From contig CM049316.1 in NCBI GenBank assembly GCA_026874595.1, forward strand, positions 56,677,676-56,741,675: a stretch of DNA of 64,000 bases. The letters are read 5' to 3'. Both the position numbers and the translations under genes were made by a program. This document shows positions 16,701-47,560 of the stretch, piece after piece. This DNA is from Sipunculus nudus. Its lineage: Eukaryota > Annelida > Sipuncula > Golfingiida > Sipunculidae. The notes beneath the pieces are model-generated. The model made no database searches. It saw nothing but the letters and a program-made list of their open reading frames with translations, and was not told where the DNA came from. Position 1 is the first letter of the stretch; each line of letters begins with the position of its first letter.

Positions 16701-17115
16701 CACGGATGCTAGCCATACAGGTATTGATGCTGTACTATCATAAGTCCAAGACGTTTACGAGAGAGTCATCGCCTATTACAGTAAGTCCTTTTCAGCAAGT
16801 GAGAAAAACTACTGTGTAACAAAGAAAGAACTGCCGGCAATAATCAAAGCGGTCCGCCACATTCATCACTACCTGTATGGTCGTTAATTTCTAGTGAGAA
16901 CCGATCACGGTGTTCTATCTTGGCTTTTTAATTTCAAGGAGCCAAAAGGCCAACTCGCTAGATGGTTTCAACAACTTGGTTGTTACGAATTTCACATTCA
17001 ACCTAGAGCAGAGCAGGGTCATAGCAAAAAAATTATATCGAGACGCCCATGCTCTACTTCTCTTTGTTATCACTGTGACGGCTATGAAAAGCGGAAAACA
17101 ACAGAGAGAGTTTAA
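16700..17115 (+). pseudogene. RNase H remnant and finger-like segment
   Basis: TDASHTGIDAVLSQ carries the first catalytic Asp. YYSKSFSASEKNYCVTKKEL carries the conserved Glu. VRTDHGVLSWLFNF carries a later Asp-His, followed by QLARWFQQLGCYEF. This is the typical Ty3/gypsy RNase H series. CYHCDGYEKR further on is a Cys-x2-Cys segment usually found between RNase H and integrase. A stop codon (CAA to TAA type) splits it near 16886. Confidence 0.8.
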
Positions 17116-17319
17116 CTCCGGTCAACTGATACCCCGCAGTTCTGTACAATGTAAGGCATGCCTTCAACTGCAGTTTCCTTGCTCGCCGACAGATCTTCAG
17201 TAGAGATTCAGCAACTCCAGCTTGTGGAGCCAGCTATTAACCCAGTTTTTCTGTGGAAAGAAGAGAGAGAGAGACCAACGCACTTCTTTCCAAAGAAGTC
17301 TAGCATTTTTCTCTATGCT

Positions 17320-17600
17320 AAGCTACACCACATACACGAATTGGCTCGTGAAAAACTTATTGCAGCTAGTGACATGAAGAAAAGTACTATGGCCAGGGGG
17401 AACATAGAGAGGACTATCAGCCAGGTCAAGCAGTCATGATACGGTATACCTTATAGGCGCCGTAGAGGTTATTCACCCAAGCATCAGAAGCGATGGGACG
17501 GCCCTTATCTGGTGCTGCGGCTAATCAGGGATTTTATACAGGAAGTCAGAAGACTCACCGAAGTAAACCGTTTACCATCCATCATGACAGGATAAAGCCT
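17320..17600 (+). pseudogene. Integrase C-terminal remnant
   Basis: The frame LHHIHELAREKLIAASDMKK is typical of the helix after the integrase core. After a frameshift the region RRGYSPKHQKRWDGPYLVLR matches the conserved K-x-W-x-GPY/F motif of gypsy integrase C-termini. The HHCC zinc finger and DDE catalytic core that should precede it are deleted. Confidence 0.75.
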
Positions 17601-22300: not shown

Positions 22301-25300
22301 ATGATAAAGAGACTAAAATGTTGTGAAACATGAACGGGGGATTTATTGTAAAATTCTTAACTGCCATATTAGGTTGTCACTTCCATATGTTGTTTACTTG
22401 GAAAATATTGAAAAAAATAAACTTTTAAGTTAATCATCTGCAAAAAACAGGTGGACAGCAGGTGGTGAAATGGACTATAAATATCATATATAATATATTT
22501 AAGTTGGATTTTTTTATACATTCTACTACACAGAGAGGTCCCCTTCACTTTTTGCATTAATGTTTATTCCAACAGGGATCAATCATAGACCCTGATATGT
22601 GGTAAATGTGTACCGATATTTTAGATTTTTTTCAGTGATCTGTTTTACGATCTTTAACATAAATTATAAACAAAAGTCATCTTTGGTGATATACAGGAGA
22701 TGTATAATTTTAGAAAAATAGCAATTATATAATGAAAGGTGGTGTGTTGTTTGAGAGTCAATGTGTCCGTTAAGTCGAATTTATCAGTTAAGATTTTCAT
22801 CTTCCTCCATAACCTTATGCATGACGTTGATGACTTGGCGAGGAAAACTTTGCATTGTTCAAGCTATATTTGAGCATTTTTTGTCAATACATATTAGATA
22901 TACTGGTTATCAACTCTATATACTTTATTCTTATATAAGTAAACATTTCTCTTAATTATAGAATAATAATATTTTGGACATTATGTGATAATGATAGTAA
23001 AATTAGTTTAAAAAAAAACCTCTAAAATGCACAATTAACTTATATGTAACACCAGTTCTCATTATACATCACTGGATGCAAACTTGTTCACATCATCAGT
23101 AATGTTCCCTGGATCAGATGTTTCGGGTTTTCAATGTTATACATCATTTTATTCTATAGATTTAGATCCGTTTTTATCATCCTGCCATTCTTTAAGCAGA
23201 TTATGAATTTGTTTCTCAGAATACCATGACTAACTCTTATCAAAACTAAACAAGCTATATCCATTATGTTCAAATGCACCCACTCCATATTGACTTTCTT
23301 GCCAGAGATCTGTCAGTTTTTACTGGAACACTGTTTCATTTTTATATCTATTCCCATGAATGGCAGTTTCAGGTCCTGACACAAGTGAGAATCAAATATA
23401 TGAACAGAGTATGAAAAAAATGAATGTATTAAGGGATATGGTCCCCATTGCTGCACATTTTCATTTTATATATTTGGATTTGTTTATCCATATGTCACAT
23501 CTGCATCTCATCATGTTAATGTTATATGAAGGTTTCTTAATTCTTTTATTACTAGATTCTTGTCATATTTTTGTTAATGTTTAATGAGGCAGGTTAAATT
23601 GTTGGACTTGCTTCGGATTCAGTGGCCATGGTTGTTCCTTAACCTCTGACATTTGTGAACTGATAATAATGGGAAGATATGTGGGATCAAAAACTTGCTT
23701 ATTTTTACAAGATGATCAGATTACTAGATGACAATCAGTTAAATAACAAATGTTTATCTTGATATAATAGAAAATTCATGATCTGAGCTGTAAAGACTAC
23801 ATTGTGACCTATGTTTTAAAAAGAATACCGTAGTCACAGTTTTTTGTCTGTTTAATCAGTACATTTGTCCACCACTGTGTTAAGTGATGTCCTAAAATGT
23901 CATTTCATCTTGATGTACCCTTATTTTCCAGGCTACAATTCATTGCAATGTGGTATTCATTATTTAAGGTCCAGTGATTTGGTTCCCGAGTACATGCAGT
24001 TTCTGTTCCTGTGAACCTTTTCACAAAGTGATGCCTTCTTTTCCGCCACCATCACTTAGTCACTAGTTCCCAAGGTTATGGTGTTATGGGAAAACAAGGT
24101 TTTTCCTGAATGTTATAAATAATCTAACAGAAATATGCATTAATGGAGAACAAATAAATGCATAGCTTTGTAGATAAGACAAAACAAAATCAAAATGTTA
24201 TGACTTGTATGGGACTATGTACTATGCAATACCAAAATGGTAATGGTATGGAAGAAAATATAATCCACTCCCAAATGGCATGTGTTAAAGGAGCAAAATG
24301 TCTAACATTAAATCAGAAAACAGAAGGAAGTCTGATATTGTAATATACTTAAATTTATTATTTATTTTATATATTTGTGTTCAATGTATTGATCCAGGCT
24401 AATGACTAATTAAATTTCATTCAAATTAATTACTGGTACTATTTGACATGACAAAGGTTTGGTCACTGCATTTCACTGACACAGTCAATAGATCTTCTTG
24501 CTATTTGATTGTAGCCACACCACACCAGACAAATTCTATATTGAACCAACCGACACTGGCACCAATGAACTTCTAATTATTGATCGCCTGACACAGGAGC
24601 TCAGATTAGAAGGTATGTAGGAAGACGTCTGTCAATAAAGCAGATTTTTACAGTGCATGATACTTCTTATCATGCATGAATAGTAGAATATATTTCCTGA
24701 GACCATTCATAACCATGGATATAATAAGATCAAAGGATTAAACAGCATTCAACAGTTTTTCTGGTTGATGAAAGTATTGAAAAGTCAGAAATATAAAGGA
24801 TATGATAAAGATTAATAATTTTATAATTTTAGTGACAGTTTCTTTATTCATCAGTACTATGTGTTGAAATTGATATAGCTAAATTGTGTTTCCTGCTTAT
24901 TTTGGCTTTGCTGAAGCTAAGTGCCATACAGAAGTACTCTAACTAGTTGGCCAATGAATGGCGATATTGATATTTATTTGATATTTCAAGGGTCATTGAT
25001 CTACATAATAGGTGTTTCATAAGATCAAAAGATAAACCCTACCCTGTAAGGTTCATGCATAGTGTCTAAATGAAGGTAGGTTAAACTGTTTCTTGTTAGT
25101 TTCATTCAGATGTTGATCATACCTGTATTATTATTGTTATTGCAGTTTCAAGTAATGCTACTTGATCTGAAGTTATGATTCATGGTACTTTTCACTTTTT
25201 TTCAGCTAATGATGGTCAAATTCCTGCAGCAGCTGTTGTGAAATATATAGATGGCATTCTGGGTATTGTCAGGATCCTTGCAGGTAATATCCTGACTTTT

Positions 25301-28300
25301 TGGTGATTTTGAATTGATTATTTTTATAATTCCATTTAATTTTTCAGAAAAATTTATTAATAGAATATTATTAGATTGCTCAGGTTCATAGAAACAGTCA
25401 AATTTAATCAAAATTAGATGAATATACACACACACACACATATCTATCTATCTATTCTTTTTTATATTTTAATAACTGTTGTTTTTTACAAATAGATTCT
25501 ACAGGAACCACTCTGCATTGAGATATGTATTTCATATGATTGAATCATACAGATACTATATATTTTGGTTTATTATCCTTTAATCTGCAATCAAAAGTCA
25601 ATTGTAAGTTACAGAATTCTGTAATGTGTATTGAAATATTTCAGTGTTGTCAAAAATACACAAGAGGTTTGTAGTTCTGTGCTGAGGCTTTAAGTAATGT
25701 ATTTCAGGTCCTTACCTGATTGTCATCACAAAAAAGGTTAAAGTTGGGGAGATCAATGGACACAGTATATGGAAGATTGCTGGAACAGAGTCAGTTTCAT
25801 ATAAGAAAACACTATTGCACATGAATGAACAACAGGTACATTGTCATATAAATTTGTAGTATTTGATAAAAAAAGTTCTTAATTGTAAATTGTTAAGCTT
25901 AATGAATAAGAATTTTTTCAGTAATAACTTATAAGTGTGCCACCTGTCTATTGTTAATAAGTATCTTACCAACAAATTTAGCTGAAATTAGTAACAATCG
26001 CATCAGCTGTAAGATATATTTGCCAGCTAGCTTGCAGTAACACATGATAAAGAAACCAATCAGTTAACATTGAATTTTAAAAAGATGTTTGATGAATATT
26101 CATAAGCACAGGCATATATGCGCACTTTTAATATGTAAAATGACCAATAATAAAAGAGTAATGGAATTTTTAAATTTCTAAAATTTCACATTTATAGATA
26201 TGAAGTCAACATAAAACATAATTTTGACATTTAATTTACTGTGTCATGTCATTTTGCAGTTAAAAATTTTATGGAATTTATGTTTTCTATTACATATTCA
26301 ATTTTTGTTGCTTTTTGCAGTCACAGGACAATGCACGGTACTTGAGTATGGTAGAACACCTCTCCTCTGTGGAGAGTTTTTATTTTTCATACTCCTATGA
26401 CTTGAGCCATACCCTGCAACGTCTTAACAACACTAGTCCAGAGTTCCTTGTTATGCCATTACATGAGAGGGTAAGTAAATTATGGAAATGAGGTTAATAC
26501 AACTTTTGTATACTTGTACAGTTTGTATTTAGCGTTGACCATTTATGTAAAAAACTCGGGGAATGCTATCATGCACCGTAACGTTTGAATGCCAGGCATT
26601 TTAAGTGTTAATCATCTTTCTAACTTTTATTAAAAAGCCAAAAAAGATAATTATAAATATCTTAGGATCTTCAAATGGTGTTGGGAGGCTGCATTTTATT
26701 TACTTACTGAAAATATTAGAGAATATTATTTCCCAGTGACAATCAGTGATGAAATATGAATTTTTTTCTGAGAGATAGGTTACCACATAACACTGAAAGG
26801 CAATTAAAACATTTGATGCCGGGATTGGGGTGGGGGAGGAGGGTTTAAGTGCCCATGTGCTCTGTTGCTTAGCGATTGTTCTTGCATCTTTGGCAACAAA
26901 GTGGTCTCCTGCAGGGATATCTACATTGTTTGTAAGAAACTGTCATATGCTTAAGTTGAAAATTTGTTACTCATAAGTCTATAGCCAAATGTTTAATTTA
27001 CATTGTGGCATAATCAGTGAAGTTCCAGAAACGAACAAATGGTTCAGAAGGGCAGTCATTATAGGATCTGCGGGTCATATCAGCGGCATCTCTTTATGCC
27101 ATGGATTAACTAGTTTTATGGCCTGTCAGGCACATGGGGCACAGACCAGGCATGGACTTGTGATTCCAGTCCTATAAACTCCTAGCTTAAACTAATTTAA
27201 AAAAAAAAATCAGGTCAGCCCTTTTGTAAAAAATATCATATAAACTAAAAAATTCATTGTAGTTTGTCCACATTAAGTGGAATACAAAAGTACTGGCTTC
27301 TCAATAGTGGTTGCATGGTTGCAATGGTTTCCCTGAAATTTGACATGCTTGGTGACCATAGATATTCATATCTATTGTATAATTCTTTCAGTTTTATACA
27401 CTGTAACAACTATATTGTGAGCTTTCAGTTCATCAATCATATGTTTTACACTGAATCACATGTTGGAACTTTGCTTCACGCAGACATATCCAGTCTTCAT
27501 GCAATGTTTAAAGAATATAGAGTCATTCAGTCTTCAATATGTTGCCAACATTTGTGAAATTTGGCCATTTTGTGCTGATCAACTGAGTGTCACTTGTCAT
27601 CTTTGCAGGCAGACCAGCGATTTGTGTGGAACCTTCATTTGCTGCGTGAATTCACATCTCAACCAGAACTCGCCAACTTTTGCCTTCCCGTCATTCATGG
27701 ATGTATCCTTACATTTGCAGCATGCTCGTTTGACATTTATGCTGTTTTTAGAATGTATGCCTTTAGATTATAATGGAAAACACTATATGTACTACTTTAT
27801 GAGATATATTCAAGGTATATGCACAACCATCGCCAGGGTTGCCTGTGGTCGGGGGGAAAGTCAGGGAAATGATATAAATTATAATGTTTTAAAGGAAGGT
27901 GAAGAGTCAGGGAATGTCATTAAAAGTTATGGAAATGTGTGATTATAAGTGAAAGTCATGGAAAAGTTTGGGGTAACAGTAGCGAGTTATCAGGTTACAA
28001 AGGTTTGACATTCCTTGGTTTAAGGGTCACAATAAATTCATCTGTATATATTATTCATTGTCTTTCAGTTAAGGTTATAGTCTGTATACAGATTTAACTT
28101 TTGTTTTTAGTCAATTTTGTGTATTTGTGGTAGGTCCAGGTTGGCTGTAAAATGAGGTAGTGGAAGCCATATTCAGGTTTTATGTGTTAATTATCGTTGA
28201 AAACCAACTGAAAGTCTGTGAAATGTCAGGGTATTCTTTTTGGGTTTGCTCTTGGAAACCCTGATATCTCATTCATTTCTGAAGGCTTGTTTCAGAAGAG

Positions 28301-31300
28301 TGTGCCAATTCTAACACTTTTTTGAGGCTGATGCCAAAGATGTGCTTGAGATTTAAAGTTAAATATGGTGATGTCATCAGTGTCACTGTAGTTTGACAGA
28401 TTATTTTATTATTTTAAGTGTAAGTCATGTGATTTAAACATGCCCCAAAACCATGACTTCCATGTTACCATGATCCAGTAGAAGGTCGGAGGTCTCTGAC
28501 TATAAAAATTACTGCCCTTGATCCAAGGACATGAACAAGCGGACATGAACAAGCCGAGGAAAAATTGCACTGTAACTTGGCCTTGTAATGTAACTCGAGT
28601 GGTCCAGCTTCATGCTTTCTTAACAATTTTGATCATATAAAATGTAGGTAAAACAGCAACAGTCATGTTTTAATGACACATAAATTATCATGTTTTATTG
28701 ATATCAGACATGAACAATCATTAAAGTTTAAATTTAATGTGCAATGACAGAATGTATGAGAAATCCTTGGCTCTACTATTAGTCTTGAGTGTCAGATGAT
28801 TTTCATATCTGCAAAATACTAAAATACCAGAATAGCATGAAAAAGTTTAAACCTGATATTAACCCTAAAAAGTTACCCTCGACCTATGCGGGGTCCACTT
28901 ATATGCATATTTTTACGGTAGTTTAGGTCATAGGTCAAAGCCTCATTATAATGATGACTCTTAACTCCAGTCAGTCATCGCCATCACACAGTGCAATATC
29001 AAGGGTAGGTCGTTCAACTACATACTGTTGTCCCGGCGACAGACTTTCAGGGCGGGCACACGTTACTATATGCGTGGCCTTGACACAGAGGGATATGCAG
29101 CAAACTATGTTGAAACAGAACAGATCATCGAGTATGAAGGCAGCAGATCAGCATTTGTCCAGGTAAAGTTTTCTGTATACAGCTCTACCATCTGAAGGTG
29201 GGATATTACTTGTATCTAAAGCATCAGACTAGAAAAAAGCAAGCTCCACCCAGCCAGTGCATATGGTGGGTTTTTAATTATCAGTCTGCAAGCCCGGAAG
29301 TTTATGTAAGATTTAAAAATTTGTAATGTGGACACACTGGTGGCATTTCAGTTCTTACAATTGTGTTTGACATGTTTTCAGCTGAAGGCCATGTGTGTTG
29401 CTGAATTTCCCAATAACATCTCTCACTCCTGTATTTTAGAGGTTCTTTTATTAGGCAGTGTGTATTCCAAATAATATAGACATCAAATAGTTATGTCATA
29501 AACAGGATTTTTTTTGACTTGGCAAAATTTTGAAAAGAGACATGCTCTTGAATTTTTTTATTCAGTGCAGTTTGCATGCTATATATCCTAAATTTTTATG
29601 TCACAATGAGCCCTCATAATTTGCATATCTGATGAATCTATAAACACGTTCAATGCATCAAGTCTGACACATTGTAGAAATATAAGCTAATTTTATTAAG
29701 CTTATTTACTTGAGTTTGACTTCATAAATCTGTTTCTTTGTATTTGGGTATCTACAGACAGTACAACAGTTTTCTCAAATTTAAGGCTCTGTACAGATAA
29801 ATATAAAAGTAACCTGTGTGATATCCAGGTAATAATAGTATACAAACTTATTCAGGCTTGCTATCTTTTCAGACCCGTGGTTCCATCCCCATGTACTGGT
29901 CCCAACGACCAAACCTGAAGTACAAACCAGACCCAGTTATCAGCTCAACATTGGACCATGTAAGTGAATACCAGCATATACAAAGTCTTAAAAGTTAAAT
30001 CATTGTTTAAAAGAGTTTATTTTGTATGTATTGGTAGTCTCCATTTCTGTGATCATTTTAGTTAGACTCTCACCTGCTGTTATGGGTAGCCAGTCTTCTT
30101 ACTGTGTAATTTTTTACAAATCACTCAGTTTAGGCCTTTTATTTAAAAATTTTGACTTTTGGAATCAATGTTTGATTGCCAACTTGCTTGCCAAGTGTTC
30201 TCTCCCTCTTTCTCTGTCTCCAGTTTACAGAAGGGAAATTGCATTAACTGAACTTATTGAGCTAAATTCAGTTTTATTTTATGAAGTATATTCACTTGTG
30301 TTTTTGCAGATGAATGGCTTTCAGAGGCATGTAGACTCTCAAATCTATCTTTATGGGAAGCAAGTCTTTATCAATCTTGTAAGTACCTGACTTATTATTT
30401 ACATTTCTCTGTTACAATAACTACAGTAATATTGCTTAATGCAAGTCAGCTTGTAGCTACATATATCACATTGACATAATTTTTGCAGTTTTATTGTGCT
30501 ATTATGCAAGGTCAGAAACATAAACCCAGACAACATGGTATTTCACATAGAGATTTTCTCATTGAATCAGCCATAATATGTGTGAGGTAATATAAGCAAT
30601 ACTTGTGTACTATTCACAAAATTAAATAAAAGGGTATGTATAACCACCATACAATTAATTACTACTCAAAACTTATTTATTTATAATTAAGGTTGGTCTA
30701 TATCAAATTCATTGGGTAAACATAGCCAAACATTTGTATGGTTTCCTATATGTGGATCAGTGACAGTACTGTGGTGGGTTTAATTCTATTTGAACTGCCT
30801 TCCCTGCTAAGACCTCAGGTAAATGTCTGTAACACAAGGGTTCACCCTCTCCACCCAGGAGCCAATGGCTGCTGGCAAATGCAGTATGAATAATCACCCA
30901 GGCCTATCACAGCTGCTTTGGATGTTTACTCTTCACGAGGCTTAGAAAGGCTGCAAGAATTAGTGTTCCCAAAAGAACAGTAAGGCAAAATTAAAAATCA
31001 GATGATGCTGACATCTTCAGTGAAATTAGACTATAAATTAACCTTTACCTTTATCATATACTGGTACATTCTGAGGAGTAAGTCAACAGCAAACTGGTTA
31101 GTGAACACTGCTGACTTAAACTCTAATATTTTACAGCAATTACATAGTCTCACATCCACCAACACACTGTAGTAGCTCCAAAAATGGTAAAATTATCAGA
31201 CAGCAGCCCAAAAAAATGTTTTGATAGACATGGCTCCCAACTCAGCCTTGACAGTCAAAGAGTAAAACATTTGGCTCTCTCTGCTGGCAGTCCGGGTTCG

Positions 31301-34300
31301 ATCCCCGGAGGCACCATGAGAGTGGGTTGTAGTAAACCGTCCAAGGTCGGTGGTATCCTCCGATTTCCTCCACCTTTAAAGACTACTGAACTCCACCACC
31401 CCAGCCATGGAGAGTGCCACCTATTAGTTATTATAACTAGTTTTACAACTCATGTAAATTAAATTAAGTTTATAAAAAAAAAATATAACCAACTTCCAGT
31501 AGTCCTGCATAATTGTTCCTGGACTTGTTGTAAGTGTTAAATGTTCTTTTTGCTCTCTGTTTCTAGTGAGAGTAGTTGAAGGCTTTATATGAGGCAGAAA
31601 GATCTACAAAAATATGGATATGGGATAGAATGTAGCTATAGGGTAAGAGATGGTTGGGGTGAGGGACATGCTTAGGGAGATAATAACATAACAGCCAGTG
31701 TACACATCAACCAAATTAAAGGACAAGTAACAGCAAAGATGTATTGTTGTGTTCCTGCAGCTGCCTCCTCAAACAACAATCCTGTCCACTGCAATATTTT
31801 AAAGCCATAAATGTTCCACAAATTGCATACAGGAAAGAAAGCAAAATGACAGCATGTTTAACTGTTTACTGACATTACCTGTTTCATTCAAATGCTGATT
31901 TCACCTTAAGTGTAAGATTTTAAACAGTGCTTTATAAAATGGGATTATAACTTTGTTATCTATGCAGTTATTGGCAGTCTTGCAGTGGATGTATCATGTT
32001 GCTTCTTTAATGTTTCTAACTGTTTAAACCATGATCTTTCAGATTGACCACAAGGGCCAGGAAGATGCTTTAGAAAAGGCATTTGCCCAGACTGTGAAAA
32101 ATTCACAGAACACTTACATCAGGTGAGTCAGTGTGAATAAAAGCAGAGCTCAACATTAACATTTGTCCAATCACCCATAGCTAATTACCAGTATTCTTTT
32201 GTGAGGATGAGCTTTCCTTGTATCAAAACTTGTTTAAACTAGTTGAAAAGCTTTAAACAAAAATGCTCAGGATCTGATTACTGTAGTTATACTATAAGTT
32301 ATTAAAAAAAAACAGTAATGGGATTTTCCAGGATTTAGTTTGCATATTCAGTGACTAGAAATAAGAAATTCTAATGAATGCCTGCCTCCACCATGTGGGA
32401 GGGAGGGTCTCTGATGTGGGATGCTCCCCCAACCCATGTTCGCATTCACTTAATAAGCCCATATCGAGTGATTCGATCTTGCATAAGTGATGGTACATTT
32501 TTCAGTATTCCTCGATTTTCCTGAATCCAGATCATGAACCAGATCCACACAAAATTTAATAAATTCTTCATCGGGCCATTCCCAGAATCCTCTAAAAATT
32601 TCATGAGATTCTGTTCATAATTGCATGAGTAATGTTGTGAACAAACACAGATACACAAAAAATACACACACATGAATGGGGGTTAATGCATACCCTCCTG
32701 CAGGAGACTATAAGCGTGTGGATTCACCAAACAAGGAATGGGATACATTGACTGATAGAATTAACCCAAACTTTGATAGAACCCATGTTTAAAAATGACA
32801 TTTATAAATAAATATTACAGATGTCTAAGGGATTAGTTTACCGTCTTACCCTGCAAATAATCCGCATTTTTTTGTCATTAAATCTAAACTAATATCCTTG
32901 GTGCATATTATACTTAGAGGTATAATTTTCCAACTATTTTCTGGTGCATTGAACCAGTCTGGTGCATTGGTAGGCGGTGAGACTGCCAAAATATCAGCTG
33001 GTGTTGAGCAATAATTTTGGAATTTAAAAGAAATGATAAGTATTGGTTAAATTGATCTTATATAGGAATGGGATACATTGACTGCTGAAATTAATCCAAA
33101 TTTTAATGGAACTCATGTTTAAAAATAAATATTACAGGTGTTTTAGGGATTAGTTTACAGCAAACATTTTGTGTCTCTTAGTACAATAAATACTTGTGTG
33201 TTTGCAGGTATGAGGCATTTGACTTTCATAAAGAGTGCAGCAAGATGCGATGGCATCGCTTGTCGATTCTTCTTGACCGGGTAGCAGAGGATCAGAGAAG
33301 CTTTGGGTAACAGAGTCTTCATACATTTTCGCCTCTGTCTCTGTCGTCATCTTAACATGTGATTTGGCAAAGTGATGAAAAGAAATAAGAAAAGCTTCTG
33401 TTCCAAAATTATTTTATTATTTGGATAATTAGTGTAATTGCATCCTTTCATTTATTATCTCTCTTTGTATTTTATGTATGTGTATGCATGATTATAACTT
33501 TCCATGTGAACCAGTTTCCTTGAAAAATTGTCATAACAGGATTGACATATAAGATCATGCAAGTCATAGTCTGCGTATGGTAAAAAATAATCTCTGAAAA
33601 AAGGAGTACCAAGAAAAAGATTTAATATCATGAGGCTCTTATATAAAATAAGTCAATAACAATATTTATAACAAAATGGACATTAAAGATTGTGAGATAG
33701 ATAGTTTATTTAGTTTTTATCAGATCAAGGTACATCAAAGTAAACATGTTTTCGTTGCTTATAAAGAAATTGAACTTGGTGCTTCAGGTATTTTATGGCG
33801 GTGCGTGATGGGAAGGTGATATGCAACCAGGAAGGGGTTTTCCGTACAAACTGCATTGACTGTTTAGATCGGACAAATGTAGTGCAAAGTCTCTTGGCCA
33901 GAAGGAGTCTACAAGAACAGCTTATTGTAAGTAAACTTTATGTTATCCATGACCTCAGGAGTAAAGGAGTTCATTATGATAATGGATGCATTTTAATCAA
34001 TACTATAAATTTGGAAACATTTTGCATGAGTATTTTTTAATTTGATTGCTGCAACATGCATTATTTTGTGTTTATATTAAAATAAGCTGTGCATAACTGT
34101 ATGATGTTCATAACCCTAAATTTTACTCTAAAAAATTAAAAAATTTAATTAGCATTTGGTATGCTGCATAAATTTAAATGCATTTCCAGGGCACTTTGAG
34201 CTAAGACTTTATAAGAGTATAACGTCTTGCATGTGGTGTGTGTACTACATAAAAGATTCATTAGTAACCTGTAAAATAATATATATATGTAATCTATACC

Positions 34301-37300
34301 GTTGATAACCATACAGTATTTACTCAAGCGTTTACCATTTAGATTTATTTTAGATTTTTGACAAATTCTGATACAGCTTATGTACATTACAGGAAATATC
34401 TTGCTTAGCTGTATTAACAAAATGTTTTGGAGTTACCACAAAGGGGATTTGCTTAAGGTTAAATGAAATCTTTAGAACTGAAAATATTATGCAATAAGTT
34501 TAACATCAGAACCTCCAGCCAAAGAAAAAAATCTACGTGCCAATCTTTAGTGGTCCTAAATGACCATCTGGACAGTTAAGGGTTAACATGAATTTAGTGG
34601 TAATTTAACATATATTAGTTCACTTGCTGTTATAAATTTGTTTTAGCCTTTTAAGTGTAATTCTTTGATAAAATTGACAGCTGCTGTGATCAAGAGCTAT
34701 AGCATTTGCTTATTTATGTCTTTTCAGCGACTTGGAGTTCTAATGCCAGGAGAGAAGGTTGAAGAGCAAGTGGAATTTGAGTTCATGTTTAAAAATGGTG
34801 AGTCAGTATGGTCACATTCCGCTTTCATCATTCAAGCATCCTGTCAAGCAGATAATCTGCAAGTTTTGTCTGATTTAAATGAGGATTAGAAATTTATTCG
34901 AGTGGTCAGTCATTTTTAAAGAGAATGCTGATGCATATGGTTTGTCATGATTAAGCCTTTTGTATATCATGACTATTGAGAATATTCAAATTTTCATTGC
35001 AACAACTGTAAGGCCTAACTTTTGTTCCACATGTCATATTGTTTGAAAAAAAGTAGCAATACAATTGTTATATATATGTACTTTTTTAATTAAAGCTATT
35101 GCTGAAATCATGACCACTATGTGCTTAAATATATGTTTTGTTCCAGTGCATTATTATGATAACTTGTTATGTCATCATATGATATCTTTAATATATTGTT
35201 TTCTTTTCACCAGTGTGGGCAGATAATGCAGATGCATGTGCTAAACAGTATGCTGGCACAGGGGCTTTGAAAACAGATTTTACAAGGTAATGGTTAACTG
35301 TAGCATTTTTCAAATATGGTACATCTATGTGTAAGCTTATTTGAATATTATAGGTCATTTTGGTATGTAACAATTCTTGTTTAAAAATATCACATAAATG
35401 TATTTTCAGATCTGCAGATTCTGATTTATATATCAAACATTTTAAAATTGTTCCGTCTAATATGTATTACCACCATTGCACTTGAAAGAGGAATTATTGT
35501 TCCAACATTGAGTATGTGTAGACATAAATAATTCATTTTAACTATACATTTTATACATTTGCATAAAGTTTAGGGATTGTATATGAAGCATAAAATGCAC
35601 TGCCCCCGAACTCTTAAAAAACTATGTAAGGAGTGTGTTTGTTATTTTATATTTTTAATTCTTTTACTATTATGGTGTATGATTCAATATATGAAATGCT
35701 GAAAAGGTATGGCAGTTTTATAAGAACAACATTATTGCAAATATCAACATTTGAAACTTCACTCAGATGACTTTGCTTGTGGTTTGATCTACACATTCCC
35801 CTATTATAAAATTTTACATGATTAGTATGGATTATATAGAACTGAATATACATTTTTTACAGGACAGGAAAGCGTACAATCTGGGGATTGATCAAGGATG
35901 GCATTAACGCATCCTACAGATATTTAATGAACAATTTCTATGATGGATACCGGCAGGTGCAGTGATAGGTGCTGCCCTCTGGGCTTGCTTCAACATTAAT
36001 GTTGCTTGATCCTTGTTGATGCACTAAATCACATAATTTAAATTTATGTAAATCTGTGATATTTAGCAACAATGGTTTATTGTAACTTTATCTTACTGTC
36101 TGTCATGGAAGTGTAGAGGATATGTGTATGTAGCTATATGTGTATTTAAAATTAAGCAGAATATTTATACTTTGTACTTTGAAAATTCTGAGAAAGATAC
36201 ATAAGGACTTTGTCTCAAAATAAAAAAGCTCTTGTATTTTGGTCTTATCCAGTGTGCATTCATTTGAAAAATCTTTATTTGAAAAATACAAATATTATTT
36301 TTTTAAATGAAACAATCAAATATTAAAATGTAACTTGTGAATAGAAAATAAAAAATGAGGCAACATAGCAATTAGGAAATATACTTTCTGGAATGTATGT
36401 TTAATACAATTTAGTTAAAGGTGTAAAAAAATTAGATTTTGCTTGAACTAGAAAGAAAGATGAAAAAAGTTGGTATTTGTGAATTCATCTATCCTAAATG
36501 TAAATTTACAGCCAAACATTTTGGAAAGTAAATGCTTATAATAGTTTCTTTGGACCTTTGGACAGAGGATAGTAAAATGTATTTAAAACATGTTGTCATT
36601 ACTTTATGAATTTGTGCATCAAAAAGGACAAGATTTTTTTAAATAACTCTTGCTTTTGTTTTCAACACCATTTTTTGTTTTGCTCAGCTTAGCTGTTGCA
36701 AGCAAGCTAGGCAGACCACTATGCTGAAATTTGGCTGATTCATGCGTTTGTGAATTTTCTTTCTTTATGCTTGGGATAGAAGTTTCTGTTGGCTGGCATT
36801 ATAGCTCCCATGAAAATGACCAGTTTTGAGTGTTGTGACAAGTTTTACATTCTCAGACATTCAGATATGATATAGTTTGTGTGTGGTATAACCATGTTTC
36901 TAGAACTGACAGCTTGTTGTATAATTTTGTATTTATTTACTCTGGCTGTTCCTCAGAATCCTTAGATGCCCTTTTTTGCATGGCCATATATACCATGCCA
37001 CCATGAGATGATGTACCAGGCCTCTCAGCTACCTCATGCATAAGATTTATCTACATCTGCCTGGCATCACCCCCAATTTTTCAAATCAGTAAGGCAGTAC
37101 CGCCTAGAAAAAATTTGCTAATATGTCTATTTTACCAGCATGACTAGAAGTCAGGATGGGGCCTGCAAACACAAATTAATTACAAGTGTTTTCCTTTAAG
37201 TATATACCCAAATGGGCACAGTTAAACTTTTTCAATTGCAGAGTACCAGCCGATGAATTAGTCTAGTTCTAACTTGTTTCATTTAGAAGGCAACTCAGAT

Positions 37301-40300
37301 GTTACAGACTTTTTGTTTTATTTTTTTGTGGAGGTAACCGTCACAATTTTTAATGCTTGCCCAACTAAGTACTATGTACATCTGCAGAAATCCCATTCAG
37401 GTTTTGGACTATGTAACAGGGGCTTACAGTTACATGTGATAAATCTGGCACCAACCAGGCTTGGTGTATCACTTCTGTGGGTCCTGGGTGTGTGTTATCC
37501 CTAATGCTGGGTCATGAAAACACTGAGGAATCCCTGAAAGGCTGACTTGTTTGTGAATGAAAGATGACTGTTGGGCACAGTCTCTCCATTATGCATGCAG
37601 AGTGCTCGCACTGGATAGGGACTGACCATGAAAAATCTCACTGCCTCGGTTGAGGTTCAAACTCAGTCTCCCATTTTTGAGCCCTTTTGTCTACCCCCAG
37701 ATCAGGGAAGATCACTAGAAATCTGAGTTTTCTATTTAATTTAATTTTCTCATGTTCACACACTTTTTGTCTTTTCTTTATTTGCCACCTAAAGACACCA
37801 CCCTGTGGTTGTTAATGAATTCCCTTTCCAGTTTTCCAATTTTCCTATGTTGTATTTATTTAGAAAAGGAAAACGTACCAAATTTGGACTGTTAAAGGAT
37901 GGATACAACTCGGCCATCCGCTACTTCAAGAACAACTTCTATGATGGTTTTCGTCAGGTAACAAATGGAAAGACATTGTGTCTTTATGCCAGCATATTTT
38001 ATGTTTGCCTACTGTTTAATCTTAATGAATAATACTATATTTTCAGAATGTAACCTGAGTTATTAAAGCACAAATATTTTTGTAAAATGTCACAAAGGTC
38101 TGCACAATACGTTTTGTCACAGCCTGTAGAAATTCTTTAATATGCCTTCACCAAATTTTGTCAGTGCAGAAATATGCAGTAACATGAGCACCTGAGGCTT
38201 TTGCAGTCTTCTTTTTGCATCATTTGCGGTATGACATCAACATTAAGTTGCAATTTTTTATAAGTAACCTTGCCTGGTTTCACTGTTTGTTAAATGCTGC
38301 TTGGCTGGCCCTTGCTAGCAGAAAAATACAGTTACTTTTGGCATGCATATATTATGTGTTTGTGTGTATATTTACTCTTTCATTATGCTTTTCATTTGAA
38401 AAAGATGAAATATTTCTTTGTGATTTGCTTGCATTCTTTCATTTCTTTTTGGAAAAAATATGTTTAATTTGATTAACAGAGTAAGAGCTGTGTGAATCAC
38501 AAAAATACCAGAAAAAAAGGTGGAAATATATAATAACATGTACATGGAAAAATAGAAAATGTATTTTTCAGTTTTATTTTTCATCATACAGTTTTCATTT
38601 GCAGTTATATTCTGAAAGACACAGATATAGAAATGCAAAATTAGTAGATAATATTACACTAATGGGATTGATAATCGTGCAAGAATGAATAACATGGATA
38701 TATATAAAATGAATAAAGAGTAGCTGAACTTTATCAGTATGAACATTTGTCAATAACATAAACACTGGCTGCATTTTCTGTGTCCTTGTCATATATAAGT
38801 ATTTCTATTTTGCCATTTTTAGGACTCGATAGATCTTTTCCTTGGGAACTACATCGTGGAGGAGCAGGAAGGAATCAGCAAGTCATGTCCGCTTCGTGAG
38901 GAGCGAGACTGGAAATTCTATGCAGTGAGTATTCCCTTGAGTTACTCCAGTACCACAACCATTAATTAAGGACTATTCCTAGTCCTTCAACAGTGAGCAC
39001 ATGTTTTTTTTCAATTTAAACTTTTTTGTTATTTTTAATTAAAGTGGAACATTTAGCTTATCAGTGTACACAGACATTATTTTGACTCCTTGGATTATTT
39101 AATACTGGATTTGGTCAGCATGAGTTTAACTAAGGGCATTAATTTAAAAGTAGTTGTTCAAACAACACTGGAGAATGAAGTATGACTGAAATCTATTCAG
39201 TGGTTTTAAGTCTATGACAACTTGTGATTGAATTCATATTCAGTGTACAGTGTTTTTTTTTTTTGCTTTTCTGTGTTTTTTATTCAATGATCACTTTTAG
39301 TTGTGTCAGATAAACTGAAAACATATACAGTCAAGCCCACTTTGTGTCATATCAGTTAATAGAAAATCCTGTTTATTGACACATAAATCTAAAATCCCAT
39401 ACCATTTCCTATTTAAACAATGGTAAACCTGACCGTTTAATATCATGGAATATTGTCATAATCCCGTTTATTGTCACGCTTGGAACCCTTGACAGTGATG
39501 TAAGTTCGTTGTTAATATCACATCAAATGCCGAAGCGGCGATCAACAAGACCAAGAGCCTGTTATCTGTCAGGCGTAACAGACCATCACATCTCCCACCC
39601 GTGTGTGGCAGACAAGTGTGGTGATGCATGCGGGTCACTCCACATCACTTAGCTAATTAACGTCTTAAGATACCACTGTAATCTAGATCATTGTGTTTCT
39701 TCATACGACAACAAGGGCGACTTTTGCAATCACATGTCATACATAATGAACTTCTGGCCTTGGCAAGGCCGCGGTTAACACCTCGGTGACGTTTCGCAGA
39801 GATGATATGAAGCACGTGCTGTTAACGTTGCTTATGACTCGAAATCCCCTTTAAAGGTCCCTGAAAGGCTGGAGGTTATGTGAGCACTTGAGGAGATACC
39901 CCGTCCAAAACCTACATTGCCGCAAAACTTCAGAATGTTGACAACAGCTTGATGATGCCCTCTCCCCAAACAGTCCTATCTTAAAGACAGTCATGGAAGT
40001 TTGAGTCATTAATAAGACATCTGGAAAATAAGGCGCAATAGTCTGGAAAGAATATCAACAAAAATAGTTTCCCTTCGCATAATGTTATAAATGTGCTGCA
40101 TTATTCCCAACATTTGACCTCATGACCGAGACTATACATCTTCTTCTGTTGGCAAGTCGGTTATTGCGGCATGCTACACAAAACTTACAGGAAATAAGGT
40201 GTGCATAAACGTAATTTGATATGCCTTTGTGCAATAAAAATCTTCATAAACGTTTCAGGTTCCTTTTTATTAACAATTTATTTAATATAATTTAAGACAC

Positions 40301-42471
40301 AATGCTTCTACTATGACTCAAAAGAACATGTTGAAGCTGCATAATATCACATCCATGTCATTATCATAATTCAAGCAAGCACCACTGACATGACAATAAG
40401 CGAGCTTGACTGTACAGCAGAACCTGTCGTGAGGGGACACCTGTGGGATATCCCCAAAGTGTCCCTACATAGCAGGTGTCCCTTCATAAGAGGTTGGGAC
40501 AGTTGCAGGCAGGGATAATGATTACTGTTTGGAGATTCATTCAACAATTAAAACAAAAGAATCACATACCTATAAGCATATAAAATAAAATGATTTTATA
40601 TCAGTAATATATATAAAAAAATATTTAAATGGACATCTGACCAAAGAAAGCAGATTCTTTGATGTCATGATTAAAAGTCTTTAATGAGCTGGTCCATATA
40701 TAAATACAAATTAAATAAATGGTGAATCATGACTTTAATTTCATAGAAATTATTACTATTTGCTAAAAAAATTTAAAAACAAATTTTTATTCAATAAAAT
40801 AGGATATTTGTAATATTTCTTAATTACATATTGTTCTGAATAAATAAATAAATATGAATAAAAGTCATCCTACAAACCTCTTGTTTAGCCAAATTTATAT
40901 GATAGGAGAATGATTTTTAATAAAAGATAAGGGTGTCATTAGGATATAGTATTCATTTAAATTTTTAGTGAACAATTAAAGTTATGCAACATTCTTTCCA
41001 CAGCACTGAATAATAAATTTATGTCTGTCAAAAGAGTAAGGTCTCTGAATGTCCCTACAGTCCACGGGAAATTATTCAAATGCAGACACCTCTAATTCAG
41101 TATTGAAACAAAATCAATTTTCAACATCAGAATTTTATCCCAACATTGAAATTATGACCGATGCCTCCTATTCAGCAATGGTTTTGTCAGATTGACATTG
41201 AATTGACCCTGAATAGGCTACACATCAGGCGGACATTCAATATGGCAGAAATGCTGGGGTGATCAGGAGCGTTTGGTGGACTTTGGCAGCTGTCGACAGC
41301 CTGTGCTACTCACAATCAAATTTGAACAATGTACAGTGATTTTGTCAGCTGAAATCAATTCAAATAATCAACTTCAAACTCAATATTTGGACAAAAATTA
41401 TTTTCTAACATAAGAAATTTATCCTGACATTGAGATTATGACTGGATGGCTCAGATTTAGCAGTGATTTTGTAAGATTTATATTGCATTGACCGGGCCTC
41501 ATATGATGCGGACATTTAATATGGCTGAAACAATGGGATATTTGGGAGGGTCTGGGGGCATTCAGTTGCTGTCACCTGCTGGTGCACCCGCAATCATATT
41601 TGGATTATACCTGTTAATCAACATTTTGACATCTTTTGCAACAGTTAGAGTTAGAATCTTCAAATGCTATCATTATTATTTTTGCAGCTTTAGAATAGTG
41701 ACCAAAGTTTGCAAGCACAAAACATCTTGTCTGCCATGTTTATACGACAGAAAAAAACTTGGGTCAACCGATGTTGATGCCCATTGGTCGAGTCAGTCAT
41801 GTGTTACAAAATTCCCGTAATTATATGAGATCTATGAATAAATCTAAATAAATGCTGTTCACGGTGTGCATGAAGCGTTTCACAGGGCTGCTTAGCTGCT
41901 ACACTCTTGCAGCATATCTGGTGGCCGCTGATATATCGGACTCAGGTGTCCATTCATTACAGGATTTTTGGGCCAAACATAAGTGTCCCTGTCCGTGTTT
42001 AGCAGGTGTCCACTCATGACAGGTCAATTTCAATGGGAAACGGGTCTGCACAATGGCTTAGTGTCCTTACATTGAAGGTGTCTGCTCATTGGTGGGTCCT
42101 GCTGTGTATATATATATATATACACACATATATTCTTGTTTTAGCTTCTTGCCTCAAGGATATAGATTTGTAGTTTATTGTAAAACCTTTTACTCTTTTA
42201 GTTGCCTTGACCTGAAGTTACCTTAGGGATACTTATGTGTAATACTTGTTTTATTTTAGCTTCCTGTGATCTTCATGCTTGCCTTCTCCATGTGTGTCAT
42301 CAGTGTAGCCATCCCTGATGGTAGGTCTTTACAATTACTTTTATACATACACCACCTCACTTAGTATTATGGCTTAATGTAGAACATTCAGGCCTGCTAT
42401 AATTCAAGGTACATGTAAAGTTGGACAGTATACATCAAAGTAATATCACAATATATCACTGGATTCATTTG

Positions 42472-47392: not shown

Positions 47393-47560
47393 TCTTATAT
47401 AAACTTCTTATAAAACTGTTTTACAGAGAATCCAAGTGAGCAGATGATGTATGTATTGTTCTGGGGCGGAGCAAGCATGGTGACCCTAGGGGTCATTTAC
47501 TATTATGGGATGGAGTTCGTTGACAAACCCAAACTAGCCCAGAAGATAAAAACCGATTAA
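19384..47560 (+). CDS. SACM1L: Phosphatidylinositol-3/4-phosphate phosphatase SAC1 (SACM1L)
   Basis: Integral ER/Golgi membrane phosphatase that removes phosphate from PI4P (and PI3P). Exons: 19384..19412, 24515..24612, 25206..25283, 25708..25835, 26321..26470, 27609..27702, 28975..29162, 29873..29959, 30310..30378, 32043..32122, 33208..33306, 33788..33926, 34728..34797, 35214..35286, then either 35863..35956 or 37864..37957, 38823..38924, 42260..42320, 47427..47560. With either alternative exon the CDS is 1773 nt (590 residues plus stop; human 587 as I recall). The catalytic Cys-x5-Arg motif CIDCLDRT puts Cys at 389, the human position. Other matches are [41 protein letters not shown] and [16 protein letters not shown]. 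Two C-terminal membrane segments lie at about 527-545 and 555-574, and the C-terminus KIKTD is a KxKxx retrieval signal. All junctions are GT/AG with matching phases. Confidence 0.97.
19993..21925. mobile_element. 1.9-kb terminal-inverted-repeat element, TATAGTCC ends
   Basis: Left end TATAGTCCGTTCCACCAACC then GTGACACTAGGTTTTTT. The right end is its reverse complement with about two mismatches over 37 bp. The interior has no transposase I can recognise; the overlapping short frames near 20530-20785 on both strands match nothing known. Located in SACM1L intron 1. Confidence 0.8.
21379..21392 (+). repeat. Homopolymer run of 14 G
   Basis: AAAAT, then fourteen G, then ACACTT. A G14 run in AT-rich intronic sequence can form G-quadruplex structure and is prone to length error. 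Confidence 0.95.
21938..22479. mobile_element. 542-bp terminal-inverted-repeat element, TATAGTCC ends
   Basis: Left end TATAGTCCGTTTCATCCCCT followed by GTCCACCTGTTTTTTGC. The right end is the reverse complement with a few mismatches over about 40 bp (ending GGACTATA). It shares the first 14 terminal bases, TATAGTCCGTTYCA, with the 1.9-kb element that ends 12 bp away. Non-coding; in SACM1L intron 1. Confidence 0.8.
27834..28263. mobile_element. Possible hAT-like non-autonomous element
   Basis: Ends CAGGGTTGCC and GGAAACCCTG form an imperfect inverted pair of the CAGGG..CCCTG type seen in hAT elements. The interior carries repeated GTCAGGGAAATG / GTCATGGAAAAG phrases. An 8-bp target duplication is not evident, so the call is weak. 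It lies in SACM1L intron 6. Confidence 0.4.
31216..31484 (+). repeat. tRNA-derived SINE
   Basis: GTCCGGGTTCGATCCCCGGAGGCACC (31290-31315) contains a perfect pol III B box and the T-arm stem of a tRNA. It is followed by a SINE body with TTTCCTCCACCTTTAAAGAC and CAGCCATGGAGAGTGCC, and an A-rich end at about 31472. The body matches the fragment at 7145..7270. It is not a functional tRNA gene: the anticodon arm and acceptor pairing are not intact. In SACM1L intron 9. Confidence 0.75.
32390..32712 (-). repeat. Dispersed repeat, copy 1
   Basis: On the minus strand it reads GGAGGGTATGCATTAACCCC, then CATTACTCATGCAATTATGAAC, AGAATCTCATGAAATTTTTAG, GGCCCGATGAAGAATT and GATCTGGATTCAGG. It is colinear with the plus-strand copy at 55240..55545, about 23 kb away and in the opposite orientation. 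The frame at 32446..32673 is part of this repeat. Confidence 0.7.
32736..33160 (+). repeat. Local duplication upstream of SACM1L exon 11
   Basis: GGAATGGGATACATTGACTG through AAATATTACAG and AGGGATTAGTTTAC occurs at 32736-32845 and again at 33064-33160, an offset of 328 bp. The intervening sequence (CCGTCTTACCCTGCAAATAA onward) occurs once. The second copy ends about 48 bp before the exon at 33208. Confidence 0.75.
33788..33926 (+). CDS. SACM1L: SACM1L exon 12, catalytic P-loop exon
   Basis: Encodes residues 367-414, including [20 protein letters not shown]. Cys389 and Arg395 form the SAC-family Cys-x5-Arg(Thr) active site; Cys392 and Asp394 of the loop are also the conserved residues. The acceptor is TTCAG, the donor ATTGTAAGT, and the exon ends in phase 0. 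The reading frame runs past the donor to a stop near 34038, which explains the longer open frame seen at 33795..34040. Confidence 0.95.
35863..35956 (+). CDS. SACM1L: SACM1L exon 15a, upstream alternative of a duplicated exon pair
   Basis: This 94-bp exon (acceptor TTTTTTACAG, donor CAG/GTGCAG) encodes residues 461-492, beginning [14 protein letters not shown] and ending NNFYDGYRQ. It enters in phase 2 from 35286 and leaves in phase 0, exactly like exon 15b. Compared with 15b it keeps the SAC-family GKRT, DGxN, RY and NNFYDG residues, but has Ile-Trp for Lys-Phe at 467-468, Ile for Tyr at 475, Tyr for Ile at 479 and Leu-Met for Phe-Lys at 482-483. The donor GTGCAGTGA is weak, as often seen in regulated exons, and reading through it gives an in-frame stop two codons later. 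There is no sign of decay. Confidence 0.9.
37864..37957 (+). CDS. SACM1L: SACM1L exon 15b, downstream alternative of a duplicated exon pair
   Basis: This 94-bp exon (acceptor TATTTATTTAG, donor CAG/GTAACA) encodes [16 protein letters not shown] through NNFYDGFRQ, 21 of 32 residues identical to exon 15a. The [11 protein letters not shown] stretch and the FRQ ending are closer to the human sequence as I remember it (NSMIRYYKNNF, GFRQ), so 15b looks like the ancestral version there, while 15a keeps the human-like RTGKRT. It follows 15a by 1907 bp of intron. Same length and same phases as 15a, so only one can be used per mRNA. Confidence 0.92.
39328..40412. mobile_element. 1.1-kb pogo/Tigger-like non-autonomous element
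   Basis: Left end CAGTCAAGCCCACTTTGTGTC, right end GACAATAAGCGAGCTTGACTG, inverted with a few mismatches, and flanked by TA (39326-39327 and 40413-40414). The interior repeats CCTGTTTATTGACAC-like phrases. No transposase is recognised. It occupies SACM1L intron 16. Confidence 0.75.
40415..42104. mobile_element. 1.7-kb element abutting the previous one
   Basis: Left end CAGCAGAACCTGTCGTGAGG, then GGACACCTG. The right end GGTGTCTGCTCATTGGTGGG, then TCCTGCTG, is its approximate reverse complement. It shares the TA at 40413-40414 with the neighbouring element; the right-hand TA appears mutated to TG. Inside, a diverged tandem duplication covers about 41110-41640 (ATTGAAATTATGACCG.. and ATTGAGATTATGACTG.., both followed by TCAATATGGC or TTAATATGGC). 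The frame at 41488..41820 lies in this element and is not convincing as a gene. Confidence 0.6.
42476..42523. repeat. (TA)n microsatellite
   Basis: About 24 TA units in SACM1L intron 17, 156 bp after the exon 17 donor. Confidence 0.95.
42822..43900 (+). repeat. Dispersed repeat with GTCGTCCGTCGT head and internal 160-180 bp units
   Basis: Head TTTTTAGCGAACCTGTGAGC then GATGGTGCGGCGTCGTCCGT. The body has diverged units recognised by TTCTCTGAAAC..AATATTKCACAGAAATGATCC at about 43058, 43374, 43551 and 43729, each followed by TTCAAATGGTT..TTTTTGGCYGAGTTA. A GGTGGCGCCACC palindrome occurs at about 43293. A head-only relic lies at 60952..61004 on the other strand. In SACM1L intron 17. Confidence 0.65.
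44420..44690 (+). repeat. Short minisatellite, about 35-bp units
   Basis: AGGTCAAGAGTTCACTCAGT with GCAGCCAGGT recurs at about 44434 (variant), 44576, 44611 and 44645. A second motif, ATAGCTTTGGCAGACTGC, occurs twice between them. Confidence 0.7.
44800..47095 (+). repeat. Composite element with a 276-bp higher-order array in the last SACM1L intron
   Basis: A unique-like segment (about 45065-45330, including GAGAACTCCTCCATAACCAC and TTTCCACACATAAACCCACA) leads into about six copies of a 276-bp unit. Its anchor TTCATCTGCCTTGGGATAAA or a variant recurs near 45433, 45709, 45986, 46261, 46537 and 46813. Each unit holds two related monomers of about 126 and 150 bp, each opening with GGTGGCGCCACC or a variant. 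The right end (TATGCAACACACCTCACTCT to CGCTTGTCGACTACCCATAT) matches the end of the inverted copy at 53391..54905. Three degenerate monomers of about 121 bp precede it at 44805-45055. Confidence 0.85.
47335..47390. repeat. (TA)n microsatellite beside the SACM1L last acceptor
   Basis: About 28 TA units ending 36 bp before the AG at 47425-47426, so it lies in the branch-point neighbourhood of the terminal intron. Confidence 0.95.
47427..47560 (+). CDS. SACM1L: SACM1L terminal exon, second membrane segment and ER-retrieval tail
   Basis: Encodes residues 547-590. A hydrophobic run [20 protein letters not shown] (about 555-574) is the second transmembrane segment; it is followed by [14 protein letters not shown] and TAA. 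The last five residues KIKTD fit KxKxx, the COPI retrieval signal type of animal SAC1. The acceptor TTTTACAG lies only about 36 bp after a long (TA)n tract. Confidence 0.95.

What the first reader, a model, noticed from the sequence alone, without database searches (positions are those of the whole stretch)
35863..37957. Mutually exclusive exon pair in SACM1L
Two 94-bp exons 1907 bp apart encode alternative forms of SAC1 residues 461-492, with 21 of 32 identical. Both have splice sites, both enter in phase 2 and leave in phase 0, and neither has stops or decay. Including both, or neither, breaks the frame, so each mRNA must choose one. The segment lies in the SAC domain after the Cys389 loop and before the membrane anchor. 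The differences cluster at 467-468, 475, 477-479 and 482-483, while GKRT, DGxN and NNFYDG are kept. This implies two SAC1 isoforms, possibly differing in membrane contact, regulation or substrate access. I know of no described SAC1 isoform pair at this site, and human SAC1 as I recall it has one version. The upstream exon has the weaker donor (GTGCAG), suggesting it is the regulated choice.
Basis: partly seen in the sequence, partly recalled or inferred. Interest (0 to 1): 0.88.

Follow-up and report, generated by a model that had tools for sequence, protein, structure and literature searches.

The report
Alternative helix exons in SAC1 phosphatase
A worm's gene for the lipid phosphatase SAC1 carries two interchangeable versions of one exon, so it probably makes two enzymes that differ in the helix next to the membrane; this is a new example of a well-known kind of gene arrangement, not yet confirmed by RNA.

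Summary
A complete SACM1L gene model (18 coding exons per mRNA, 590 aa) carries two 94-nt exons, 15a (35863-35956) and 15b (37864-37957), encoding alternative residues 461-492 (21 of 32 identical). Either one gives the full ORF; both, or neither, give a stop 176 or 153 nt before the last junction. Both look selected: differences fall 7/7/16 over codon positions; neutral drift from 15b to the same distance keeps 12.9±1.9 of 31 residues against 20 seen; each exon keeps 18 of 19 columns conserved in relatives; the 200 nt beside them are no longer alike. The duplication is probably old.

Corrections: the host groups with annelids, probably Sipunculus nudus, not molluscs. The donor argument is weak. 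One intronic pairing with the 15a acceptor is a lead, unproved.

Added: exon 15 encodes a loop and most of a long predicted helix before the membrane anchor. Alignments to both yeast Sac1 crystals end before it; that to the membrane-bound cryo-EM chain runs past it. I read the pair as a mutually exclusive switch tuning the membrane-proximal helix. RNA evidence is missing. New member of a known kind.

The parts
19384..19412 (+). SACM1L exon 1, coding part ([10 protein letters not shown])
   Evidence: one of two candidates of a loose scan, chosen for likeness to the Capitella N-terminus; completes a 590-aa ORF. Inferred, no RNA.
24515..24612 (+). SACM1L exon 2
   Evidence: tblastn with human SAC1 written from recall, splice sites
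25206..25283 (+). SACM1L exon 3
25708..25835 (+). SACM1L exon 4
26321..26470 (+). SACM1L exon 5
27609..27702 (+). SACM1L exon 6
28975..29162 (+). SACM1L exon 7
29873..29959 (+). SACM1L exon 8
30310..30378 (+). SACM1L exon 9
32043..32122 (+). SACM1L exon 10
33208..33306 (+). SACM1L exon 11
33788..33926 (+). SACM1L exon 12, catalytic CX5R loop (Cys389)
34728..34797 (+). SACM1L exon 13
35214..35286 (+). SACM1L exon 14, constitutive exon upstream of the switch; ends in AG, first two bases of codon 461
35835..35860 (+). 15a acceptor tract; candidate partner of 38552-38578 (lead only)
35863..35956 (+). exon 15a, alternative codons 461-492 ([31 protein letters not shown]); donor CAG|gtgcag
35957..37863 (+). 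intron between 15a and 15b (1907 nt), too long for steric exclusion
37864..37957 (+). exon 15b, alternative codons 461-492 ([31 protein letters not shown]); donor CAG|gtaaca
38552..38578 (+). A+T-rich intron stretch that could pair with the 15a acceptor tract, -21.6 kcal/mol (lead only)
38823..38924 (+). SACM1L exon 16, constitutive exon downstream of the switch
42260..42320 (+). SACM1L exon 17 (first transmembrane helix)
47427..47560 (+). SACM1L exon 18, last coding exon (second transmembrane helix, KIKTD C-terminus, stop)

Best explanation
This is a tandem duplicated, mutually exclusive exon pair in an annelid SACM1L gene. Shown from sequence: each exon alone restores the 590-aa frame, and both together or neither give early stops. 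Inferred: wrong mRNAs are removed by nonsense-mediated decay, and splicing factors, perhaps helped by a pairing that hides the 15a acceptor, make the choice. [quoted passage not shown] Helix length and the conserved polar residues are kept; 15b has net charge +6 with lysines at 462, 467 and 483, 15a has +3 with Thr, Ile and Met there. The isoforms would have the same reach but a different grip of that helix on membrane lipid or on the catalytic domain, and so tune PI4P hydrolysis or compartment choice by tissue or condition.
For: Frame logic and stops. Constraint on the pair: codon-position differences 7/7/16, dN 0.25 with dS 1.98 (NG86) or 0.78 (LWL85; YN00 failed), simulation 12.9±1.9 against 20 residues. 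Exon 15a keeps 18 of 19 columns that are >=90% conserved in 102 distinct relative segments, and every 15a residue is seen in at least two of them. Had the 15a branch taken 0.2 neutral changes per site, so much would be kept with P 0.003 to 0.012 depending on the starting sequence, and at 0.3 with P below 0.0005. The 200 nt upstream and downstream are not alike beyond shuffles. Predicted helix 467-499 in window numbering (466-498 in the Lineus model, pLDDT about 84-90). The alignment of the model ends at residue 454 in 3LWT and 449 in 4TU3 but at 590 in 8C81; exon 15 is yeast 464-495. Removal of human 452-587, which also takes the membrane anchor, abolished activity, and the 70-aa stretch was reported essential by Cai et al. 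as cited there (PMC5829913, passages).
Against: No RNA reads: use of either exon is unproven. No a-like protein among the hits listed in three protein searches; 90% clustering would hide full-length isoforms, and the closest relative is only 68% identical. The relatives used for the column counts were themselves found with these queries. Helical moments of the two versions differ little (0.52 and 0.59), and the variable helix positions cluster on one side only modestly (P 0.025). That the helix touches lipid is inferred from its position and from PMC10550967, which names an amphipathic helix without residue numbers in the passages I saw. Intron a-b against intron b-16 scored 20, reached by 2 of 40 shuffles, so faint intron similarity is not excluded.
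Confidence: 0.72

Rival explanations
1. One copy (most likely 15a, the less similar to relatives) is a relic: a once-used duplicate exon that lost its use recently and is now skipped.
For: 15a is less like relatives (mean 19.8 of 31 identical against 22.5 for 15b); its donor matches the consensus at 5 of 9 positions; no listed relative carries it.
Against: No stop, intact AG/GT sites, 18 of 19 conserved columns kept, every residue seen in relatives. 0.2 neutral changes per site would leave this with P 0.003 to 0.012; only a recent loss (0.05 to 0.1 changes per site, P 0.56 to 0.07) fits well.
Confidence: 0.13
2. Unproductive-splicing control: the duplicate exists mainly to make double-inclusion or double-skip mRNAs that decay and so set SAC1 level, with the protein difference secondary.
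For: Both wrong forms place stops 176 and 153 nt before the last junction, which by the recalled 50-55 nt rule predicts decay.
Against: A poison exon needs no coding constraint, yet both copies look constrained at the protein level.
Confidence: 0.08
3. Exclusive use is enforced mainly by RNA structure: the 15a acceptor tract (35835-35860) pairs with 38552-38578 downstream of 15b, or with weaker competing sites at 35624-35653 and 36111-36141, and the pairing hides 15a so that 15b is used.
For: The pairing energy of -21.6 kcal/mol is reached by 0 of 60 intron shuffles; for that intron it is the strongest of the gene's 18 acceptors, 1 of 63 composition-matched tiles is as low, and 0 of 60 blocks elsewhere in the window pair as well. 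Competing structures are known in such clusters (PMC6071210, abstract).
Against: Found after looking at 12 site-intron combinations. The sites in intron 14 and intron a-b are not exceptional: 3 and 10 of 63 tiles and several other acceptors pair as well or better. A+T-rich; six larger intron-piece comparisons showed nothing; no relatives' introns for covariation.
Confidence: 0.14

Closest known systems
COQ-2 exons 6a/6e (C. elegans, parasitic helminths, annelids, molluscs), PMC7434440, passages
   Same: two internal exons used in a mutually exclusive way in an enzyme; present in annelids; few residue changes with a functional consequence
   Different: coq-2 is backed by RNA-seq and exon deletions and switches a quinone product; here no RNA, another gene and fold
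Mutually exclusive exon clusters of the human atlas, PMC5740500 (passages)
   Same: similar length, same frame, sequence similarity; frame conflict on joint inclusion leading to decay is one of the modes described
   Different: the string SAC1 does not occur in that main text
OGDH exons 4a/4b, PMC7969005 (start of abstract in a search listing)
   Same: two mutually exclusive exons in a metabolic enzyme
   Different: there enforced by distant branch points that restrict intron length; here the intron is 1907 nt and the AG-free stretch before 15b is 30 nt
Yeast and human SAC1 (3LWT, 4TU3, 8C81; PMC5829913, PMC10550967, passages)
   Same: orthologous enzyme: CX5R loop, region before the anchor, two transmembrane helices
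   Different: I know of one version of residues 461-492 in each (recall; no isoform pair in searches)

Membership tests
Mutually exclusive exon pair from tandem exon duplication | neighbouring internal exons of equal or similar length, same phase | tested here: met
   94 and 94 nt, both phase 2 in, phase 0 out
Mutually exclusive exon pair from tandem exon duplication | homologous sequence between the exons | tested here: met
   64 of 94 nt, 20 of 31 aa; 0 of 200 shuffles reach the score
Mutually exclusive exon pair from tandem exon duplication | exactly one exon yields an intact frame | tested here: met
   a or b 590 aa; both or neither early stop
Mutually exclusive exon pair from tandem exon duplication | transcripts with each exon, and none or few with both | not testable with these tools
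   no RNA data available
Docking/selector RNA-structure MXE cluster | competing long-range pairings in flanking introns | tested here: inconclusive
   six intron-piece pairs show nothing; one notable pairing of the 15a acceptor with intron b-16, picked from 12 looks; no covariation test possible
SAC1/SACM1L phosphatase | SAC homology domain and CX5R catalytic loop at 389 | tested here: met
   Syja_N 1.9e-86; Cys389
SAC1/SACM1L phosphatase | C-terminal membrane anchor of two helices | tested here: met
   helices 521-542 and 548-571 in the model of the Lineus relative and homologous sequence here
SAC1/SACM1L phosphatase | closer to SAC1 than to other SAC proteins | tested here: met
   against solved structures, yeast Sac1 358 bits, FIG4 183 bits; the 120 hits listed of 5042 are named SAC1 or SAC domain or are unnamed/hypothetical. 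SAC2 and synaptojanin were not compared.
SAC1/SACM1L phosphatase | PI4P phosphatase activity of each isoform | not testable with these tools
   needs an enzyme assay

The most novel reading that the evidence does not exclude
Annelids of this lineage splice between two SAC1 enzymes that differ in the membrane-proximal helix needed for catalysis: a weakly charged form and an exceptionally basic one, with an intron pairing that hides the 15a acceptor as the switch. This would be an isoform control on PI4P breakdown and PI4P-driven lipid exchange at the ER of which I found no report in vertebrates, and a natural test of what that helix does.
Probability: 0.3. Interest if true: 0.67.

Novelty: new member of a known kind. 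Interest (0 to 1): 0.45.

Why it matters
SAC1 sets the PI4P gradient that drives lipid exchange at the ER, and how its catalytic domain meets the membrane has been debated (cis or trans action, PMC5829913, passages). The two yeast Sac1 crystal structures align only up to a point before the segment that this gene offers in two natural versions of identical length. If both are expressed, swapping them is a ready-made test of the helix that changes sequence without changing reach.

Tried and rejected
Rejected: a mollusc host (tree; note that the single most identical row is a nemertean, Lineus, 67%); a retrocopy or second SAC1 gene as the source of an exon; an assembly duplication (30 of 94 bases differ, neighbouring 200 nt unlike); steric exclusion (intron 1907 nt); a distant branch point (30-nt AG-free zone); a described RNA family in the window (0 matches at gathering score); conversion of SAC1 to trans action by a longer linker, since both exons have the same length and PMC5829913 (passages) reports that about 6 nm extra is needed.

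Led nowhere: protein searches for the a-form (best hit to the 15a region 80% over 44 residues). A scan for the segment being unusually diverged between close relatives gave mainly sea urchins (Lytechinus against Diadema, 0.74-0.77 in the segment, 0.87 upstream), mild and unresolved. U1 energies allow a shifted register, so I do not rely on them. Of 224 proteins held, 4 had no readable segment and were left out of the column counts; 218 entered, compared without gaps. My first conserved-column simulation counted 15a against 15b's residues with the consensus threshold; I repeated it with matching thresholds and use that. On review I also withdrew a statement that no repeat links the exon flanks: one search lists pairings of the 15a acceptor tract (I13, I19) and of exon 15b (I20), which led.
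Full report
What is there. The + strand carries a SACM1L gene with an unbroken frame. Guided by a human SAC1 sequence written from recall and by splice sites, I placed exons 2 to 18 between 24515 and 47560, and the coding part of exon 1 at 19384-19412, one of two candidates of a loose scan. The joined coding sequence is 1773 nt, 590 aa, with Cys389 in the CX5R loop and a KIKTD end. At position 15 there are two exons of 94 nt, 35863-35956 (15a) and 37864-37957 (15b). Each alone gives the full frame. Both together stop at 37942-37944; neither stops at 38830-38832; the stops are 176 and 153 nt upstream of the last junction, which by the recalled 50-55 nt rule predicts decay.

Is it more than chance. 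The exons share 64 of 94 bases and 20 of 31 residues, or 21 of 32 with the junction arginine. The alignment score of 35 is not reached by any of 200 base shuffles (mean 7.6). Differences fall 7, 7 and 16 on codon positions 1, 2 and 3; dN is 0.25 with dS 1.98 (NG86) or 0.78 (LWL85), and YN00 failed. Mutating 15b at random to the same distance keeps 12.9±1.9 residues and leaves no stop in 32% of runs; none of 20000 runs reached 20 residues (starting from 15a 0.025% did). Against 102 distinct segments from 220 of 224 relatives held, 15a keeps 18 of the 19 columns conserved at 90% or more (it loses Ser477) and 15b also keeps 18 (it loses Thr462); these relatives were found with 15a and 15b as queries, so they lean towards likeness. 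The 200 nt on either side of the two exons show no similarity beyond shuffles (200 of 200 upstream and 53 of 200 downstream shuffles reach the observed score); whole intron a-b against intron b-16 is borderline (2 of 40) and intron 14 against a-b is not (34 of 40). If the 15a branch had evolved without constraint for 0.2 changes per site, the observed retention would have P 0.003 to 0.012, at 0.3 below 0.0005; at 0.05 to 0.1 it would be unremarkable. So only a recent loss of 15a escapes these tests. Among relatives, the 6415 pairs whose 250 upstream residues are at least 80% identical do not fall below 0.74 in this segment; 15a and 15b are at 0.65, a level seen here only in pairs less alike upstream.

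Which animal. A tree of the rest of the protein (44 rows, segment removed) puts the gene in a set of 9 rows at 99/93 with Paralvinella, Capitella and six unnamed rows; Owenia joins at 93/88. The most identical single row is the nemertean Lineus (67%), but it groups with the other nemertean and the molluscs. The assembly has 1,426,538,692 bases; Sipunculus nudus was published at 1,427 Mb, with Sipuncula placed in Annelida (PMC10212961, abstract). I infer S. nudus or a close relative. One gene in the assembly matched across SAC1 (18 of 20 listed matches).

What the segment is. The model of the Lineus orthologue (mean pLDDT 89) shows a short helix 456-461, a long helix 466-498, then no helix of four or more residues until 521; window numbering is one higher. 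Exon 15 thus encodes the GKRT loop and about 26 of 33 residues of that helix. In the VIA-align comparison the aligned range ends at residue 454 of 3LWT and 449 of 4TU3 (yeast Sac1 crystals) but at 590 of the membrane-bound cryo-EM chain 8C81_E (ranges give only first and last aligned residues). 3LWT has 457 residues in the library against a 505-residue sequence. By the alignment, exon 15 corresponds to yeast residues 464-495, so I take it as unresolved in the crystals and ordered in the complex. [quoted passage not shown] and that the region is structured, with an amphipathic helix, in the membrane complex (PMC10550967). That the amphipathic helix is this helix is my inference.

How the versions differ. 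The 11 differences leave GKRT, DGxN, RY, NNF, DG and RQ intact. Ten lie in the helix and cluster on one side (P 0.025; mean direction 336 degrees, conserved positions 181 degrees; the two sets are nearly complementary, so not independent). Helical moments are similar (0.52 for 15a, 0.59 for 15b). 15b has net charge +6 with lysines at 462, 467 and 483; 15a has +3. The 102 relative segments span +2 to +5 and none has a basic residue at all three places; none has Lys462. So 15b is unusual in charge, while 15a is less like relatives overall (mean identity 19.8 against 22.5 of 31). Neither is simply the ancestral form.

Mechanism. Most likely one-of-two splicing, with frame conflict and decay removing errors. 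Steric exclusion does not apply to a 1907-nt intron, and a distant branch point is unlikely. Six comparisons of 300-nt intron pieces showed no pairing beyond shuffles. On review I tested the four splice-site tracts against the three introns (12 looks). The 15a acceptor tract beat all 60 shuffles for each intron; the best case is 35835-35860 with 38552-38578, -21.6 kcal/mol against -12.7±2.1. Controls: for that intron it is the strongest of the gene's 18 acceptors, 1 of 63 composition-matched tiles is as low, and none of 24 blocks elsewhere in the gene or 36 downstream pairs as well. For the other two introns it is not exceptional (3 and 10 of 63 tiles; several other acceptors pair better). After 12 looks, in A+T-rich sequence and without relatives, this is a lead: such a pairing would hide the 15a acceptor and favour 15b. 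The donor of 15a is poorer by consensus (5 of 9 against 7 of 9), but three other donors of the gene are as poor or poorer. Because both exons have the same length, reach should not change; tuning of membrane grip or of the catalytic domain is the simplest effect. This step is inferred.

Limits. No RNA data. The protein hits I saw include no a-like form (120 of 389 listed; 120 of 5042; 4 of 4), but clustering at 90% hides full-length isoforms and no close relative is held, so absence is not shown. Literature searches for SACM1L with mutually exclusive exons (0 papers), Sac1 with mutually exclusive, alternative splicing and phosphoinositide phosphatase (3 papers) and SACM1L with alternative splicing, isoform and exon (11 listed of 12) listed no report of such a pair; I judged these by listing, and the library lacks most subscription journals.

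Verdict. A real, constrained tandem exon pair, most likely mutually exclusive, in a gene where I found no report of one, at a functionally important helix. It belongs to a known kind; its interest would rise with RNA proof and an activity difference.

Noticed in passing
window 57373-58740, - strand: 455-aa open frame with BACK and Kelch repeats, a KLHL-type gene; no BTB match in this frame, so an upstream exon is probably missing from it.
   Followed up: partly
window 4304-4591, - strand: Frame matching dihydrouridine synthase (Dus, 1.6e-07); a frame at 6340-6633 on the same strand may be another exon of that gene (by eye).
   Followed up: partly
window 13980-17439, + strand: Several short frames and a fragment at 16696-16794 with an in-frame stop look like remnants of a Ty3/gypsy-type retroelement (recalled motif); three of these frames gave no Pfam match.
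   Followed up: partly
window 35543-35557 and 35847-35861; 36924-36939 and 37847-37862: The sequence just before each alternative acceptor has a near-copy further upstream in the same intron (15 and 16 nt, 93-94%); possibly chance in A+T-rich sequence.
   Followed up: no
window 35835-35860 and 38552-38578: Candidate long-range pairing of the 15a acceptor with the intron after 15b; needs relatives' introns or a minigene.
   Followed up: partly
P0172/P0178 (Lytechinus) against P0208/P0212/P0219 (Diadema): In sea urchins the same SAC1 segment is more diverged (0.74-0.77) than the 250 residues before it (0.87), against the general trend; could hint at a similar exon choice or at plain drift.
   Followed up: no
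G000 C1:14179096-14179221 (-) and C14:53275158-53275379 (+): Partial matches to SAC1 (60% and 36%) elsewhere in the genome, probably other SAC-domain phosphatases.
   Followed up: no
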